Positions 18,037 through 27,476 of a stretch of 39,933 nt of DNA are shown here, piece by piece. The DNA comes from an uncultured Anaerolineae bacterium. GTDB lineage: Bacteria; Chloroflexota; Anaerolineae; CG2-30-64-16. Both the position numbers and the translations under genes were made by a program. Numbering within the stretch: the first letter of the stretch is position 1; each line of letters starts with the position of its first letter. The notes beneath the pieces were generated by a model. That model was not told the DNA's origin and ran no database searches. It saw nothing but the letters and a program-made list of their open reading frames with translations. The stretch is taken from assembly GCA_937124585.1 (NCBI GenBank), contig CAKZKT010000164.1, positions 1-39,933 on the forward strand. Reading direction: 5' to 3'.

Positions 18037-18384
18037 CACGTGCCAGGCACTCTACAAGATGCCTGGCACGTCTGGAGAATCACGTGCCAGGCACTCTACA
18101 AGATGCCTGGCACGTCTGGGGAATCACGTGCCAGGCACTCTACAAGATGCCTGGCACGTCTGGGGAATCACGTGCCAGGCACTCTACAAGATGCCTGGCA
18201 CGTCTGGAGAACCACGTGCCAGGCACTCTGCAAGATGCCTGGCACGTCTGGGGAATCACGTGCCAGGCACTCTGCAAGATGCCTGGCACGTCTGGGGAAT
18301 CACGTGCCAGGCACTCTACAAGATGCCTGGCACGTCTGGGGAATCACGTGCCAGGCACTCTGCAAGATGCCTGGCACGTCTGGG
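18037..18384 (+). repeat. Eight tandem 44-bp hairpin units between aconitase and isocitrate dehydrogenase
   Basis: Eight units start at 18037, 18081, 18125, 18169, 18213, 18257, 18301 and 18345, each 44 bp. Each contains ACGTGCCAGGCA, a 10-base loop (CTCTACAAGA or CTCTGCAAGA) and TGCCTGGCACGT, a perfect 12-bp stem, then a linker CTGGRGAAY. Variation is minimal: A/G in the loop (G in units 5, 6 and 8) and GGAGAA for GGGGAA in units 1 and 4. The array fills the 380-base gap between acnA and icd. It has no stop codon in any forward frame. It is not a CRISPR, because there are no unique spacers. It resembles REP-type palindromes and may protect or separate the mRNA of the two genes. Confidence 0.95.
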
Positions 18385-21776: not shown

Positions 21777-22274
21777 ATGGCAGACCTGGAAGCTCCGTCT
21801 GCTGAAGAAGCCACTCGACGTAAATTCCTGGCCGGCTTGATCGGTGTCGTGGCCGGTTTGGTCAGCACGATCGTCGCGCTGCCGGCCATCGGTTACCTCG
21901 TCTCGCCGGGCCTGAAACGATCAGGCGAGGAAAAATGGATCAACCTCGGTCCCCTGAGCAGCGTCGTGCCGGGCGTGCCCACGCCCTTCAGGTGGTCCCG
22001 CCGTGTCGAGGACGGCTGGGTGAAGACCACGCAGTCCGGCACGGCCTACGCCGTGCAGTTGGAAGGGCAGGAGCTGAAGGTGCTCTCCGATGTGTGCACG
22101 CATCTGGGATGCCGGGTCACCTGGGACCAGGATCGCCAGCTCTTTGTTTGTCCCTGCCACGACGGTTTCTTCGCGATTGACGGCCGAGTGACGTTCGGCC
22201 CGCCGCCGAAACCTCTGATCAATCTGCCCTATCGCATCGAGAACGGCCAGATTCAGATCCGCCTGGAGGCATAG
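21777..22274 (+). CDS. qcrA: Rieske [2Fe-2S] subunit of the quinol:cytochrome c reductase
   Basis: 165 residues. It takes electrons from quinol at the Qo site and passes them to cytochrome c. Rieske ligands are Cys107 and His109 (CTHLGC) and Cys125 and His128 (CPCHDG); Cys112 and Cys127 form the usual disulfide. An N-terminal TRRKFLAGLIG followed by a hydrophobic helix (residues 18-42) is a Tat-like membrane anchor with a single Arg pair. The GPPPKPL loop is typical of QcrA/PetC. AAGGAG lies 9 bases before the ATG. The gene starts the operon. Confidence 0.96.
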   Translation: MADLEAPSAEEATRRKFLAGLIGVVAGLVSTIVALPAIGYLVSPGLKRSGEEKWINLGPLSSVVPGVPTPFRWSRRVEDGWVKTTQSGTAYAVQLEGQELKVLSDVCTHLGCRVTWDQDRQLFVCPCHDGFFAIDGRVTFGPPPKPLINLPYRIENGQIQIRLEA

Positions 22275-22276
22275 CT

Positions 22277-22966
22277 GTGGCTGATGTTCCCGCTCCCCCG
22301 ACAAGCAGGACACAAGCGCTCTTTCGCTGGCTAGATGAGCGCGCCGGCCTGACTACGATCTGGCGCACGATCTTTGCCCGTCCTGTCCCCAAGACCAACT
22401 GGTTCTACACCCTCGGCAGCGCCACCCTGATCCTGGCGCTGCTGCAGGGGCTCACCGGCATGCTGTTGACCGTCTACTACGTGCCGTCGCCCGACAAAGC
22501 CTACGACAGCATCCAGTACATCATGAACGAGGTGGCGTTCGGCTGGCTGATTCGAGGGATGCATCATTGGGGCGCCACGTTGCTGGTGGTGCTGGTGTTT
22601 CTGCACATGTTGAAGGCCTTTTTCGTGGGCGCCTACAAATATCCGCGCGAGATGACCTGGCTCACCGGCGGCGTGCTGCTTCTGCTTGTCCTGGTTATGG
22701 GCTTCAGCGGCTATCTGCTGCCCTGGAACCAGAAGGCATATTGGGCCACGACCGTCGGCACAAACATCGTCGGCGCGGTGCCTGTGGTGGGTCCGCTGCT
22801 GCTGCGCATCGTGCGCGGCGGCCAGGAGGTGGGCGCGGTCACCCTGGCCCGCTTCTACGGCCTGCATATCTGGTGGATTCCGGCCATCTCGGCCGCGGTG
22901 GTTGCCGCCCACATGTACCTGATCATCCGCATCGGGATCAGCGCGCCGCCCGACCGGGATGAATGA
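22277..22966 (+). CDS. qcrB: Cytochrome b (b6-like, short form)
   Basis: 229 residues with four transmembrane helices, corresponding to the N-terminal half of cytochrome b. Haem b ligands are His96, His110, His197 and His212, with the 14- and 15-residue spacing of the b6 type. The position of the Cys that binds an extra haem covalently in b6f and Bacillus QcrB (FYCLGG) is Thr here (WFYTLGS), so that haem should be absent. A GTG start at 22277 is set by GGAGG seven bases before it, inside the end of qcrA. Only two bases separate it from qcrA, so coupling is likely. It pairs with subunit IV encoded next. Confidence 0.95.
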   Translation: MADVPAPPTSRTQALFRWLDERAGLTTIWRTIFARPVPKTNWFYTLGSATLILALLQGLTGMLLTVYYVPSPDKAYDSIQYIMNEVAFGWLIRGMHHWGATLLVVLVFLHMLKAFFVGAYKYPREMTWLTGGVLLLLVLVMGFSGYLLPWNQKAYWATTVGTNIVGAVPVVGPLLLRIVRGGQEVGAVTLARFYGLHIWWIPAISAAVVAAHMYLIIRIGISAPPDRDE

Positions 22967-22990: not shown

Positions 22991-24085
22991 ATGAACGAAG
23001 AAGAGAAGAAGCGCTATCTCGAACGTTATAAGGAGAAGAAGGCTGACGGCGAGCTCTTCTTTCCCCACGCGATCGCCAAAGATGCGGTTGTCTCGCTGGG
23101 GGTCTTCATCCTGCTGCTCTGCCTGGTCGTGTTCGTGGGCATCCCCGAAGAACCGCCTGCCAATCCGGCCGATACCTCGTACATCCCGCGGCCCGAGTGG
23201 TACTTCCTGTGGGCTTTCCAGGCGCTCAAATACTTCCCTGGCCAGCTGGAGGGGGTCGCCATCATGGGGATGGGCCTGCTCATCGCCGTGGGGCTTTTCG
23301 GCCTGCCCTTCTTCGACCGCAACAGCCGACGCCATCCCCGCAATCGGCCCGTTGCCACTCTCAGCATGATCGGGATTGTGGTCGGCCTGATCTTCCTGAC
23401 CATCCAGGCCGTGGTGACGACGCCACATTCAGAGGCGACCGGCACGATCATCGGCGGCACCAAAGAGGAGCGCATTCAGGCCGGCGGTGAATTGTATGCC
23501 CAGCACTGCGCCGAATGCCATGGCGAGAACGGCGAGGGCGCCGAGCTGAAGGGCAAAGCCGGCGAGGTGACCGATCCACTCAACTCCGATGACTTCTTGA
23601 CCGGCCACTTCGACGATACGATCTTCCAGCTCATCAGCTATGGCCAGCCCGGCGCAGGAATGCAGGCGTTCGGCCTGGCCTATGGCGGCCCGCTGACCGA
23701 CCAGGAGATCAACGCGATCATCGCCTTCATGCGCGCCTGGGCCGAGCCGGAGGAGGAGCCAGCCGAGGCCCTCGTCGACCTGGCCGCGATCGAAAATCCG
23801 AGCTTTGCCAAAGACATCAAGCCGATTTTCGACAAGAAATGCGCCAGCTGTCACAGCAAGCGACTGAAGGGCGGCTACAGCGTGGCGACCTACGAGCTGG
23901 TGATGACCAGCGGTGACCACGCGCCCGTCATCATCCCGGGCGATGCAGCAAACAGCATCCTCGCCAAGATGCTGCGCGGCATCAAGACCGAGGCGGGTGG
24001 GTTGATGCCGCCGGGCCGGCCGCTGAAACAGGCGCAGATCGAGCTGATCGAGCGCTGGATCAATCAGGGCGCGCAGAACAATTGA
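22991..24085 (+). CDS. qcrC: Subunit IV-cytochrome c fusion with two c-type haem motifs
   Basis: 364 residues in three parts. Residues 1-145 are subunit IV-like (the C-terminal half of cytochrome b) with about three membrane helices and the Qo-site PEWY at 68-71. Residues 160-250 form a class I cytochrome c with CAECH (173-177) and probable axial Met224. Residues 265-364 hold a second haem motif CASCH (284-288) with Met339 in GLMPPG, in a domain like the planctomycete-type PSCyt1 (VIIPGDAANSILAKML, ELIERWINQGA). Bacillus QcrC has the first fusion but one haem; actinobacterial QcrC has two haems but no subunit IV part. The extra haem domain may pass electrons on to a terminal oxidase. GGAGG precedes the ATG. 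Confidence 0.93.
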   Translation: MNEEEKKRYLERYKEKKADGELFFPHAIAKDAVVSLGVFILLLCLVVFVGIPEEPPANPADTSYIPRPEWYFLWAFQALKYFPGQLEGVAIMGMGLLIAVGLFGLPFFDRNSRRHPRNRPVATLSMIGIVVGLIFLTIQAVVTTPHSEATGTIIGGTKEERIQAGGELYAQHCAECHGENGEGAELKGKAGEVTDPLNSDDFLTGHFDDTIFQLISYGQPGAGMQAFGLAYGGPLTDQEINAIIAFMRAWAEPEEEPAEALVDLAAIENPSFAKDIKPIFDKKCASCHSKRLKGGYSVATYELVMTSGDHAPVIIPGDAANSILAKMLRGIKTEAGGLMPPGRPLKQAQIELIERWINQGAQNN

Positions 24086-24097
24086 CACGAGGGAAAG

Positions 24098-24496
24098 ATG
24101 AGCAAACTGGCCCGCGTCACACTCTCGCAATTTCTGACCTATCGCGGCGGCCAACCGATGTTGGCCTGGCTGTTGCATCGAATCGCCGGGATCGGCATCG
24201 TCCTCTTCGTCGGCATGCACGTGCTGGCCGCGTTCTTCCTCTACGGCGTGACCGGCGGCACGGCGAATACTGTGGCGAATGCCCTGACCGAATTCTACGA
24301 ATCGCGACCGATGCAGATCTTCATCCTGTTCGCCGTCCTGTACCACGGCATTAACGGCCTGCGGATCGTTGTGTTGGACATGTGGCCGGGGCTTCACCGT
24401 TTCCATCGCGAGGCGATGTGGCTGCAGTGGGCGGTGTTCCTGCCGATCTTTTTGATCCCGGCCTTCTTGATCGCGCTCGGCATCAAGATCGGTTGA
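24098..24496 (+). CDS. sdhC: Succinate dehydrogenase cytochrome b subunit
   Basis: 132 residues with three membrane helices. It anchors succinate dehydrogenase and holds haem b and the quinone site. LLHRIAGIGIVLF (His27) is the family signature at helix I, and His83 in LYHGINGLRI is the likely haem ligand. GAGGG precedes the ATG. Twelve bases separate it from qcrC, which ties quinone-reducing and quinol-oxidising complexes to one transcript. Confidence 0.93.
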   Translation: MSKLARVTLSQFLTYRGGQPMLAWLLHRIAGIGIVLFVGMHVLAAFFLYGVTGGTANTVANALTEFYESRPMQIFILFAVLYHGINGLRIVVLDMWPGLHRFHREAMWLQWAVFLPIFLIPAFLIALGIKIG

Positions 24497-24520
24497 CGGG
24501 AGCCATCTCAGGAGGTGCAC

Positions 24521-24958
24521 ATGGCTGCTCACATCGGCTCATCGGCTCGCTCTCGCAGCAAGTTCGAGCTCTACATGTGGTTCTTCACGCGCGTCTCGGG
24601 TGTTCTGATGCTGGTGCTCGGCGCGTACAGCATCATCTATGCCAACCTGATCGGCGGGCCTGGCATGATGGATGCCGCCGCGCAGACTCGCTGGGCGTTC
24701 TTTCCCATCTCGTTCCACGTGACGGCTTCCAAAGTCGAGGTGGAGCCCAATTTCCAGAACGCCTTCTGGCAGTTCTACGGCCTGCTGCTGTTCCTCCTGG
24801 CGGCAACGCACGGCACGAACGGCATCCGCGTGATCCTCAAAGACTATGTCCGCCAGCCGGTACTGTTGGCCTGGCTCAACGCGTTGCTGTTCATCGTGTG
24901 GCTGAGCATGTTGGGCGCGGCCGTCTATCTGCTTTTCGTGGCACAGGGTGTCTCGTAA
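24521..24958 (+). CDS. sdhD: Succinate dehydrogenase membrane anchor subunit
   Basis: 145 residues with three membrane helices. His97 in ATHGTNGIRVILKDY is the candidate haem b ligand or quinone-site residue. ATG 24521 is chosen because GGAGG is five bases upstream; a GTG six bases earlier overlaps that ribosome site. It forms the membrane part together with SdhC. The loop with PISFHVTASKVEVEPNF, between helices I and II, is longer than in E. coli SdhD. Confidence 0.9.
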   Translation: MAAHIGSSARSRSKFELYMWFFTRVSGVLMLVLGAYSIIYANLIGGPGMMDAAAQTRWAFFPISFHVTASKVEVEPNFQNAFWQFYGLLLFLLAATHGTNGIRVILKDYVRQPVLLAWLNALLFIVWLSMLGAAVYLLFVAQGVS

Positions 24959-24973
24959 GGAGTGGTTTCAGGC

Positions 24974-26767
24974 ATGATTCATCGTTTTGACGTGATCGTC
25001 GTCGGCGCCGGCGGCGCCGGCTTGATGGCCGCCCTCTACGCGTCGCGCGGGGCCAAGACCGCTGTCATCAGCAAGCTCTATCCGACCCGCTCGCACACCG
25101 GCACCGCGCAGGGCGGCATCGGCGCCGCGCTGGGCAACATGGAAGAGGACCACCCTGAATGGCACATTTTCGACACCATCAAGGGCTCTGACTATCTGGC
25201 CGACCAGGACGCGGTGAAGATCCTCTGCGAAGAAGCGGTCGGGATGGTGTACGAGCTGGAGCATATGGGGCTGCCGTTCGACCGCACGCCTGACGGCCGC
25301 ATCGCGCAGCGGCCATTCGGTGGGCATACGAACAATGTCACCAAACAGCCTGTGCGCCGGGCCTGTCACGCGGCCGACCGCACCGGCCACATGATCCTGC
25401 AGACCGTTTATCAGCAGTGCATCAAGAACAACGTCACCTTTTTCGACGAGTATCAGGTGCTCGATCTGCTGGTGAACGACGAGGGTCATGTCGCCGGCGT
25501 GACGGCCATCCATATTGACAGCGGCGAGCTGCACACGTTTTATGGTAAGGCGACGATCTTCGCCACCGGCGGCTTCGGCCGGCTCTGGAAGATCACGTCC
25601 AACGCATACGCGCTGACCGGCGACGGCGTGGCCGTGGCCTTCCGTCGCGGCATCCCCCTCGAGGACATGGAGTTCTATCAGTTCCATCCCACCGGCATCC
25701 TCGGCCTCGGCATCCTGTTGACCGAGGGCGTGCGCGGGGAGGGCGGTGTGCTCATCAACGGCGAGGGCGAGCGTTTCATGCCGCGCTACGCGCCCACGGT
25801 CAAAGACCTGGCCTCGCGCGATGTCGTGTCGCGGGCCATCTACCTCGAGGTGCGCGCCGGGCGAGGGATCGGCGGCAAGGACTATGTCTACCTGGACGTG
25901 CGACCGGAGACGGTGAACAAATATTTCGTGGAGGACGGCGTCAAGAATCCCGACGGCACCCCGCGGCGCATCACCGCGCAGGATATCCGTCGCAAGCTGC
26001 CGGATATCTCCGATTTCTGCAAAACCTATCTGCAGCTCGATCCGATCAAATCGCCGCTGCCGATCCAGCCGACGGCCCACTATGCCATGGGCGGCATCCC
26101 CACGAACAACAACGCCGAGGTGGTGATCGACGCGCAGGGCACAGTGATGCCCGGCTTTTACGCGGCCGGCGAGTGCGCATGCGTCTCGGTTCACGGCGCC
26201 AATCGGTTGGGCACCAATTCCCTAGTGGACATCCTGGTGTTCGGTCGCCGCGCCGGGCAGAATGCGGCCATCTACGCGGCACAGGCCGACTGGCCCAGGC
26301 TGCCCGCCGCGGCCGAAGAGCCGGCTCGCGCCGCGCTCGCAGCCATCCGCAACGGCACCGGCCGTGAGGTAGTCGCCCAGATCCGGGCTGAGATGCGCAG
26401 CCTGATGATGGACAACGTCGGCGTCTTCCGCACCGAGGCGCTGCTCAGCGAGGCGCTGGCCAGGTTGCGCGACCTGAAGGAGTGCTTTAGCCGCATCTCC
26501 ATCATGGACAAGGGCAAGCGGTGGAACACGGAGCTGCTCGAGGCGTGGGAGCTCGGCTGCATGCTCGACCTCGCCGAGGTGACCACGGTGGCGGCGCTCA
26601 CGCGCACGGAGAGTCGCGGTGCCCATTTCCGCGAGGATTTCCCCGAACGCGATGACGTCAACTGGCTGAAGCATTCCCTGGCCTATCTGGAGGCCGATGG
26701 CCAGATACGCATGGATACGAAGCCGGTCACGCTCGGCCTGTACGAACCGGCCAGGCGCGTCTATTGA
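24974..26767 (+). CDS. sdhA: Succinate dehydrogenase flavoprotein subunit
   Basis: 597 residues. It oxidises succinate to fumarate with covalently bound FAD. The dinucleotide-binding motif GAGGAG is at 11-16, and His41 in [10 protein letters not shown] is the FAD-linked His. [15 protein letters not shown] and [11 protein letters not shown] carry the dicarboxylate-binding and catalytic residues. The C-terminal [16 protein letters not shown] is typical of SdhA/FrdA. The ATG at 24974 starts [17 protein letters not shown] stands 11 bases upstream, rather far, and a GTG at 24962 is the alternative. Confidence 0.97.
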
Positions 26768-26783
26768 CGAAGGGAGCGCGAGG

Positions 26784-27476
26784 ATGAAGGTCAAGGTCAA
26801 GGTGCGTCGTTTCAATCCGGAAAAGGACCACCGGCCCTATTGGGGCGAGTACCAACTGGAGGCTCAGCCGACCGACCGTGTCCTGGACCTGTTGGTATAT
26901 ATCAAGGGCTACATTGACGGCACGCTTACGTTTCGACGTTCCTGCGCCCACGGCATCTGCGGCTCCGATGCGATGGTGATCAACGGCCGCAATCGGCTGG
27001 CCTGCAAAGAGCTGGTGAAAGATGTGGGGCGCACCATCGTGATCGAGCCGTTGCGCGGGCTGCCGGTGATCAAGGACCTGGCAGTAGACATGGAGCCGTT
27101 CTTCCGCAAATATCGCTCGATCCTGCCGTTCCTGATCAACGATGAGCCGCCGCCGTACACGGAGCGGCTGCAAAGCCCGGAAGCGCGCGAGCGTTTCGAC
27201 GACACGACGAAATGTATTCTCTGCGCTGCCTGTACCACCTCCTGCCCCAGTTTCTGGGCCAATGACAGCTATCTCGGCCCGGCAGCCATCGTGCAGGCGC
27301 ACCGTTTCATTTTCGACGACCGCGACCGCGGCGCGCAGGCGCGCCTGGCCATCCTGGCCGAGGCCGATGGCGTCTGGCGTTGCCGCACGATCTACAATTG
27401 TGTGGATGCCTGCCCGCGTGAAATTGACATCACCAGGGCGATCGGCGAGGTGAAGAAGTTGCTGTTGGTGGAGTGA
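26784..27476 (+). CDS. sdhB: Succinate dehydrogenase iron-sulfur subunit
   Basis: 230 residues carrying three clusters. [2Fe-2S] ligands are Cys54, Cys59, Asp62 and Cys74 (Asp at the third position as in E. coli). [4Fe-4S] ligands are Cys144, 147, 150 and 154 (CILCAACTTSC), the first three bound to that cluster with the last shared in the usual pattern. The [3Fe-4S] motif has Cys200, 206 and 210 (CRTIYNCVDAC). Electrons run from FAD to quinone. AGGGAG precedes the ATG at 26784. It is the last gene of the operon and is followed by a palindrome at 27496. Confidence 0.96.
   Translation: MKVKVKVRRFNPEKDHRPYWGEYQLEAQPTDRVLDLLVYIKGYIDGTLTFRRSCAHGICGSDAMVINGRNRLACKELVKDVGRTIVIEPLRGLPVIKDLAVDMEPFFRKYRSILPFLINDEPPPYTERLQSPEARERFDDTTKCILCAACTTSCPSFWANDSYLGPAAIVQAHRFIFDDRDRGAQARLAILAEADGVWRCRTIYNCVDACPREIDITRAIGEVKKLLLVE

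What the first reader, a model, noticed from the sequence alone, without database searches (positions are those of the whole stretch)
22991..24085. Triple fusion: subunit IV, cytochrome c and a second PSCyt1-like haem domain
Subunit IV-cytochrome c fusions occur in Bacillus (one haem) and diheme QcrC in Actinobacteria (separate from b). Here subunit IV carries two distinct CxxCH domains, with CAECH and CASCH. The second is of a planctomycete-like type, suggesting domain transfer and a built-in route to an oxidase.
Basis: partly seen in the sequence, partly recalled or inferred. Interest (0 to 1): 0.55.

Follow-up and report, generated by a model that had tools for sequence, protein, structure and literature searches.

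The report
Complex III subunit carrying two haem domains
In a group of Chloroflexota bacteria, one membrane subunit of respiratory complex III is permanently joined to two electron-carrying haem domains (in a few relatives to seven or eight), so the enzyme seems to bring its own wire for handing electrons on; this extends a known theme and does not break it.

Summary
Window 22991-24085 (+) encodes 364 aa: subunit IV, a class I cytochrome c and a PSCyt1-type haem domain, each above its Pfam cut-off, with Rieske and b6 genes directly upstream and sdh genes downstream. It is not a lone oddity: 31 of 298 sampled genomes of the class match the whole fusion, and all 79 aligned proteins keep both CxxCH motifs and both candidate Met ligands. 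A predicted model (pLDDT 78) gives residues 268-364 a cytochrome c fold. Transfer from planctomycetes is not supported: the name is Pfam's, Chloroflexota have free PSC-type cytochromes, and the nearest are closer than the one planctomycete sequence obtained. A route to an oxidase is plausible but unshown: the only COX1 found in this genome sits with Alternative Complex III. The context goes further: three genomes of the class have subunit IV fused to seven or eight haem domains ending in a PSC-type cap, and one distant genome has PSC-type domains on both subunit IV and oxidase subunit II. Verdict: a real, conserved new variant of the dihaem bc complex.

The parts
21777..22274 (+). Rieske 2Fe-2S subunit (QcrA/PetC-like), 165 aa
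   Evidence: PF00355 36.8 bits, cut-off 20.3; Rieske match in 76 of 80 named loci
22277..22966 (+). cytochrome b6-type half of a split cytochrome b, 229 aa; no cysteine at the place where b6f b6 has one
   Evidence: PF00033 178 bits; best solved matches are cytochrome b6 chains, whose 'FYCLG' aligns with 'FYTLG' here
22991..24085 (+). the fusion: subunit IV + cytochrome c + PSCyt1-type haem domain, 364 aa
22991..23416 (+). subunit IV module, residues 1-142, PEWY at 68-71, long helices 26-48, 86-108, 120-143 in the model
   Evidence: PF00032; model helices
23462..23746 (+). haem domain 1, class I cytochrome c, residues 158-252
   Evidence: PF13442/PF00034; VIA-align rows to cytochromes c6, cbb3 and bcc-complex c subunits, Z 10-11
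23507..23521 (+). CAECH haem motif 1, residues 173-177
   Evidence: C, C, H invariant in 79 of 79
23660..23662 (+). Met224, candidate sixth ligand of haem 1
   Evidence: invariant in 79 of 79; ligand role inferred
23789..24073 (+). haem domain 2, PSCyt1 type, residues 267-361
   Evidence: PF07635; model range 268-364 on FoxE, Z 10.5
23840..23854 (+). CASCH haem motif 2, residues 284-288
   Evidence: C, C, H invariant in 79 of 79
24005..24007 (+). Met339 of 'MPP', candidate sixth ligand of haem 2
   Evidence: M339 and P340 invariant in 79 of 79; ligand role inferred
24098..24496 (+). sdhC-like succinate dehydrogenase anchor, 12 bases after the fusion gene
   Evidence: ORF; name from position and order, no family search; matched in 70 of 80 named loci
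24515..24958 (+). sdhD-like anchor
   Evidence: ORF; name from position, no family search; matched in 70 of 80 named loci
24962..26767 (+). sdhA-like flavoprotein
   Evidence: ORF; named from the sequence by eye, no family search; matched in 67 of 80 named loci
26697..27476 (+). sdhB-like iron-sulphur subunit frame (true start probably further downstream)
   Evidence: ORF; named from the sequence by eye, no family search; matched in 59 of 80 named loci

Best explanation
This is the membrane c-type subunit of a quinol-oxidising Rieske/cytochrome b complex with a split, b6-like cytochrome b. Subunit IV completes the quinol site and anchors, on the outer side of the membrane, two cytochrome c domains in series. 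Inferred path: quinol -> Rieske cluster -> haem of domain 1 (the cytochrome c1/f equivalent) -> haem of the PSC-type domain (a tethered stand-in for a mobile cytochrome c) -> a separate acceptor, most likely a cytochrome c-bearing haem-copper oxidase or a small anchored cytochrome c. Shown here: gene order, module order, conservation of both haem sites, cytochrome c folds in the model. Inferred: haem loading, side of the membrane, order of electron flow, identity of the acceptor.
For: Modules and motifs; Rieske and b6 matches in 76 and 79 of 80 named loci; both haem sites and both Met invariant in 79 of 79; PSC domain about as conserved as the rest (mean column identity 0.67, against 0.69 for subunit IV, 0.71 for domain 1, 0.62 and 0.60 for the linkers); model with cytochrome c folds for both domains; a free PSC-type cytochrome ORF inside the bc gene cluster of G177 and between cox genes and a b6-subunit IV ORF in G089; in G053 a PSC-type domain on oxidase subunit II that is 66% identical to one on its subunit IV; this genome's CoxB carries a cytochrome c domain.
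Against: No biochemistry. The only COX1 found in this genome is clustered with Alternative Complex III, not with bc, and a bd oxidase is also present, so this complex need not feed a haem-copper oxidase. COX1 and COX2 matches lie near the fusion in only 2 of 80 named loci (flanks of at most 8 kb, often cut by contig ends). The genome has other small cytochromes c, so a built-in wire is not obligatory as it is in actinobacteria. The model has no haems, Foldseek gave no match at E <= 0.001, and only one of 50 VIA-align rows covers domain 2.
Confidence: 0.62

Rival explanations
1. Same dihaem complex, but the PSC domain's partner is not an oxidase: it hands electrons to free or anchored cytochromes, reductases or other outer acceptors, or takes electrons in.
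For: The oxidase of this genome is clustered with Alternative Complex III; a free PSC cytochrome and dihaem cytochromes are encoded elsewhere in the genome; the bc genes sit with sdh, not cox.
Against: Free PSC cytochrome between cox and bc genes in G089, and PSC-type domains on both CoxB and subunit IV in G053; both genomes are of other classes, so this bears on the window only by analogy.
Confidence: 0.27
2. The PSC domain was acquired by transfer from Planctomycetota.
For: Pfam names PF07635 after planctomycetes; the one planctomycete sequence obtained is homologous (33% identity).
Against: PF07635 in 62 of 199 genomes of the class; free domains of the class up to 43% identical, and Bacteroidota and Gammaproteobacteria plasmids hold homologues too; the fused domains form one side of a branch, 100/97. 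Only one planctomycete was sampled and its branch is long, so the root is open.
Confidence: 0.08
3. The second haem domain is a structural or docking piece, or is not loaded with haem, and takes no part in turnover.
For: No direct evidence.
Against: CxxCH and Met339 invariant in 79 of 79; cytochrome c fold; a PSC-type domain is also the C-terminal cap in the three 7-8 haem relatives.
Confidence: 0.03

Closest known systems
Actinobacterial QcrC of the bcc-aa3 supercomplex (Corynebacterium, Mycobacterium)
   Same: Two cytochrome c domains on a bc complex that link complex III to complex IV (PMC8361435, passages seen). Chains of this subunit are among the structure rows for domain 1.
   Different: QcrC is a subunit of its own with its own anchor (anchor recalled); here the domains hang on subunit IV, cytochrome b is split, and the second domain is PSCyt1-type.
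Kuenenia stuttgartiensis Kuste3096-3097
   Same: Dihaem c1 equivalent fused to the b part in one chain (PMC12954380, passage seen).
   Different: Fused with cytochrome b as described there; the passages seen mention no PSCyt1 domain.
Bacillus-type bc complex (subunit IV fused to one cytochrome c)
   Same: Split b, and subunit IV fused to a cytochrome c (fusion recalled; split b in thermophilic bacilli is in the reference list of PMC3578206, passage seen).
   Different: One haem domain in Bacillus (recalled); here two or more.
Chloroflexi bc complexes in Ward et al. 2018 (PMC5826079, passages seen)
   Same: Same broad lineage; a bc complex is described there as vertically inherited in Ca. Thermofonsia, while Anaerolineae are said commonly to use Alternative Complex III. 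L062, titled Ca. Roseilinea mizusawaensis, has this fusion.
   Different: The passages seen do not describe the subunit's domain make-up.
Planctomycete PSCyt1 proteins
   Same: Haem domain family; CxxCH ... MPP pattern also in the Singulisphaera sequence.
   Different: There the domain stands near the start of a large protein annotated 'PSD1 and planctomycete cytochrome C domain-containing'; here it ends a respiratory subunit.

Membership tests
Split-b Rieske/cytochrome b complex | Rieske gene, b6-type gene and subunit IV gene in one cluster | tested here: met
   PF00355, PF00033, PF00032 above cut-off in consecutive ORFs
Split-b Rieske/cytochrome b complex | PEWY quinol-site motif on subunit IV | tested here: met
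   PEWY at residues 68-71, invariant in 79 rows (one of the two scan peptides held this motif)
Cytochrome b6f complex proper | cysteine on b6 that binds haem ci (role recalled) | tested here: not met
   'FYCLG' of b6 chains aligns with 'FYTLG' here; the 229 aa contain no Cys
Cytochrome b6f complex proper | cytochrome f | not tested
   genome not searched for it
Actinobacterial QcrC (NCBIfam NF050122) | score above curated cut-off over the dihaem subunit | tested here: not met
   44.1 bits, cut-off 200
Bacillus QcrC-type fusion | subunit IV fused to cytochrome c | tested here: met
   PF00032 and PF13442 in one ORF; but an extra domain follows
PSCyt1 (PF07635) | score above Pfam gathering cut-off | tested here: met
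   32.9 bits, cut-off 22
c-type cytochrome, domain 2 | cytochrome c fold with a candidate Met ligand | tested here: met
   model 268-364 on 5mab_C, Z 10.5, 2.2 A, 91 residues; M339 invariant; ligand geometry not measured
c-type cytochrome, domain 2 | covalently bound haem | not testable with these tools
   needs haem stain, mass or spectra

The most novel reading that the evidence does not exclude
Chloroflexota complex III carries a modular, covalently built-in haem wire of variable length on subunit IV, from one or two up to seven or eight cytochrome c domains, whose PSC-type end cap is a plug-compatible connector also found free beside bc genes and, in one genome, on oxidase subunit II; complexes III and IV would then be wired by exchanging the same haem module, and chain length would set how far from the membrane the electron is delivered.
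Probability: 0.3. Interest if true: 0.72.

Novelty: new variant of a known kind. Interest (0 to 1): 0.5.

Why it matters
It describes a respiratory complex, recurrent in one class of Chloroflexota, in which the c1 equivalent and its electron carrier are one chain with the quinol-site subunit; I know of no solved structure of such a complex (recalled, not searched by organism). The series of relatives (free PSC gene, dihaem fusion, seven to eight haem fusion, PSC-type domain on CoxB) lets one test how III-IV wiring evolves by moving one haem module, and whether long haem chains let complex III deliver electrons to distant acceptors.

Tried and rejected
Artefact or frame error: rejected, as full-length relatives occur in many separate assemblies.

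Rows dropped from the trees: five loci of the PF07635 survey (L141, L148, L158, L161, L168) that my extraction script did not find; the three Novosphingobium and one of two Catenovulum plasmid hits were not fetched; three free domains had been entered twice and the copies were removed. About 100 columns are too few for deep forks, and the bootstrap had not settled. In one search (quick method) the caps of the seven- and eight-haem forms do not sit clearly inside the fused clade: two (G345, G431) fall on the side of the free domains (89 SH-aLRT) and one (G514) beside the fused clade (89), so common descent of all caps is not settled.

The first structure model, from 14 sequences, was poor (pLDDT 53) and not used. 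Of the 50 VIA-align rows only one covers residues 268-364 (FoxE); the others cover domain 1, some reaching into subunit IV; Foldseek had 0 matches at E <= 0.001. A sequence search of solved structures with domain 2 alone gave only short weak matches: two QcrC-type chains at E 0.0037 over 22 residues and 4rlr_A at 0.0054 over 21.

Prior description: in the listings I saw no paper on subunit IV fused to a PSCyt1 domain or to seven or eight haem domains; I saw listings, starts of abstracts and passages of seven papers, none read in full. Two reviews of bc evolution that I recalled are not held, so a prior mention is possible.

Full report
WHAT IS THERE. The ORF at 22991-24085 (+) encodes 364 residues from an ATG. 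Pfam finds subunit IV (PF00032, 56-142), cytochrome c (PF13442 161-247 and PF00034 163-248) and PSCyt1 (PF07635, 284-341), all above their cut-offs. By the ORF coordinates, 2 bases separate Rieske from b6, 24 separate b6 from the fusion, and 12 separate the fusion from the sdhC-like ORF, so Rieske-b6-fusion-sdhC-sdhD-sdhA-sdhB is probably one operon (inference). The aconitase, isocitrate dehydrogenase and amylase-like ORFs upstream, and the sdh ORFs, were named from sequence and order by eye, not by a family search. The b6 protein is closest to solved b6 chains but has Thr where they have the Cys of 'FYCLG'; that this Cys binds haem ci is recalled, so haem ci in its usual form is unlikely here.

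HOW COMMON IT IS. In 301 genomes of the phylum (own, 37 others of the class, 263 of other classes; the match list was cut at the weak end) subunit IV and the PSC domain lie in one frame in 13 of the 37 (G283 and twelve of family f2; all 13 sequences were read) and, among the listed matches outside the class, in a divergent form in G053. In 298 genomes of the class 31 match the whole fusion model in one frame, counting the window's own: 24 in one piece, 7 in two pieces; two more are cut short (G563, G471). For these 31 the call is by model coverage; not every sequence was read. That match list was also cut at the weak end. In the window's own family 7 of 9 relatives match whole, G471 in part, G430 not. 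The named scan matched 339 stretches, 334 encoding relatives, and kept 80; titles are Anaerolineae, Anaerolineales, Caldilineae, Chloroflexi or Chloroflexota, three Anaerolinea, two 'uncultured bacterium', and one each of Candidatus Roseilinea, Candidatus Desulfolinea, Brevefilum and Chloroflexus sp. Two length classes exist: in one the first CxxCH lies about 105 residues after PEWY, in the other about 55-75 residues later; the extra stretch looks hydrophobic and may hold two further helices (by eye).

CONSTRAINT. Of 79 aligned proteins, all keep both CxxCH, M224, M339 and P340. Mean column identity is 0.69 (subunit IV), 0.71 (domain 1) and 0.67 (PSC domain) against 0.62 and 0.60 for the linkers. 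The rows are related and were chosen as the best matches, so this shows constraint, not independent events.

FOLD. With 79 sequences the model of the window protein reaches mean pLDDT 78, pTM 0.43; the ten-residue blocks from 261 on are 76-95. VIA-align gives cytochromes c6, cbb3 and bcc-complex c subunits for domain 1 (Z 10-11), and FoxE of strain SW2 (listed as a putative iron oxidase) for residues 268-364 (Z 10.5, 2.2 A, 91 residues). Foldseek E-values for the whole chain are weak (best 7.5e-3).

WHERE THE DOMAIN COMES FROM. PF07635 was found in 62 of 199 genomes of the class (own included), often in short free proteins, several with a lipoprotein-like start (by eye). This genome has one besides the fusion (C133). 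In a tree of 117 domains the 79 fused ones lie on one side of a branch with 100/97 support. Identity of the window's domain: 43% to a free domain of G072, 40-43% to the next five free ones, 38% and 35% to those in the bc clusters of G089 and G177, 33% to Singulisphaera, 30-33% to two Bacteroidota and one gammaproteobacterium; some free domains of the class are only 28-32%. A home-grown module is the simpler reading.

RELATIVES THAT EXPLAIN IT. (a) Free form: G177 has a PSC-type cytochrome ORF just before its Rieske ORF; G089 has one between its COX1/CoxB ORFs and a fused b6-subunit IV ORF, with no Rieske matched in the stretch fetched. (b) Shared form: G053 has subunit IV with two PSC-type domains and, on another contig, CoxB with a PSC-type domain followed by COX1; the CoxB domain is 66% identical to the last one on subunit IV and the three form one clade, 100/98. 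On CoxB and on the last subunit IV domain the type is judged by similarity; Pfam's PF07635 is reached only by the first of the three. G053 is the only one of the 7 genomes of that class with it. (c) Long form: G345 (700 aa, 7 CxxCH), G431 (819 aa, 8) and G514 (714 aa, 7) have subunit IV, four extra short cytochrome domains, a domain like domain 1, one or two more, and a PSC-type cap 45-48% identical to the window's; Rieske and b6 ORFs precede each. Of 396 class genomes only these 3 match the long form over 600 residues or more (at most two candidates per genome were scored, so more may exist). (d) Other di-, tri- and tetrahaem forms without a PSC cap occur (L012, L027, L089, L100, L187, L186). 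In a subunit IV tree the fused, long and L089/L187 forms group together with 90 SH-aLRT (quick method).

WHAT IT FEEDS. One COX1, its CoxB with a cytochrome c domain and a SURF1 lie in one cluster with ActD, NrfD, molybdopterin, iron-sulphur and multihaem ORFs, that is an Alternative Complex III cluster (one 485-aa membrane ORF in it had no Pfam match). A bd oxidase is present. Thus the cell has two likely quinol:cytochrome c routes and one detected haem-copper oxidase. The bc complex could share that oxidase through the PSC haem or through other cytochromes; the data do not decide.

COMPARISON WITH THE KNOWN. Function most resembles actinobacterial dihaem QcrC, which links III and IV (PMC8361435, passages), and architecture resembles Kuenenia Kuste3096-3097, where a dihaem c1 equivalent is fused to b (PMC12954380, passages). 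It differs by the split b, the subunit IV anchor and the PSC-type second domain. Nitrospina has a split b beside an octahaem cytochrome gene (PMC3578206, passage), a separate-gene counterpart to the long forms. Hence new variant of a known kind.

Noticed in passing
L180:38-2137 (-), L181:113-2569 (-), L182:3947-6088 (+): Subunit IV fused to seven, eight and seven CxxCH domains with a PSC-type cap, in three genomes of three families of the same class, each with Rieske and b6 ORFs upstream.
   Followed up: partly
L130:5628-6791 and L137:4763-5791: One genome (G053) carries PSC-type haem domains on both subunit IV (two) and oxidase subunit II (one); 66% identity between the last of the two and the CoxB one.
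   Followed up: partly
window 22277-22966: b6-like protein lacks the cysteine that b6f complexes have at 'FYCLG'; here 'FYTLG'.
   Followed up: partly
window 18037-18384: Tandem array of a 44-base unit, 7.9 copies, 97% matches, between the aconitase-like and isocitrate dehydrogenase-like ORFs; the unit holds the inverted pair GTGCCAGGCA / TGCCTGGCAC.
   Followed up: no
L049, L052, L053, L063, L068 (C-terminal ends of the fusion ORFs): Five of 80 named relatives run on for about 170-210 residues after the PSC domain (L052 cut by its contig end); Pfam names nothing in the extension of the three scanned (L049, L053, L063).
   Followed up: partly
L122 (own genome C119:1-20000): Alternative Complex III cluster with the only COX1 detected in the genome and a cytochrome c-bearing CoxB; so bc complex and ACIII coexist.
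   Followed up: partly
L186:2807-5290 (-): One ORF with cytochrome b6, subunit IV and four CxxCH motifs (828 aa); a ten-CxxCH ORF lies upstream and a frame with sixteen lies downstream.
   Followed up: no
window 22991-27476 and L042-L121: SdhC-like match within the fetched flank of the fusion in 70 of 80 named loci: same strand in the window's nearest relatives (L042-L047), opposite strand in the others.
   Followed up: partly
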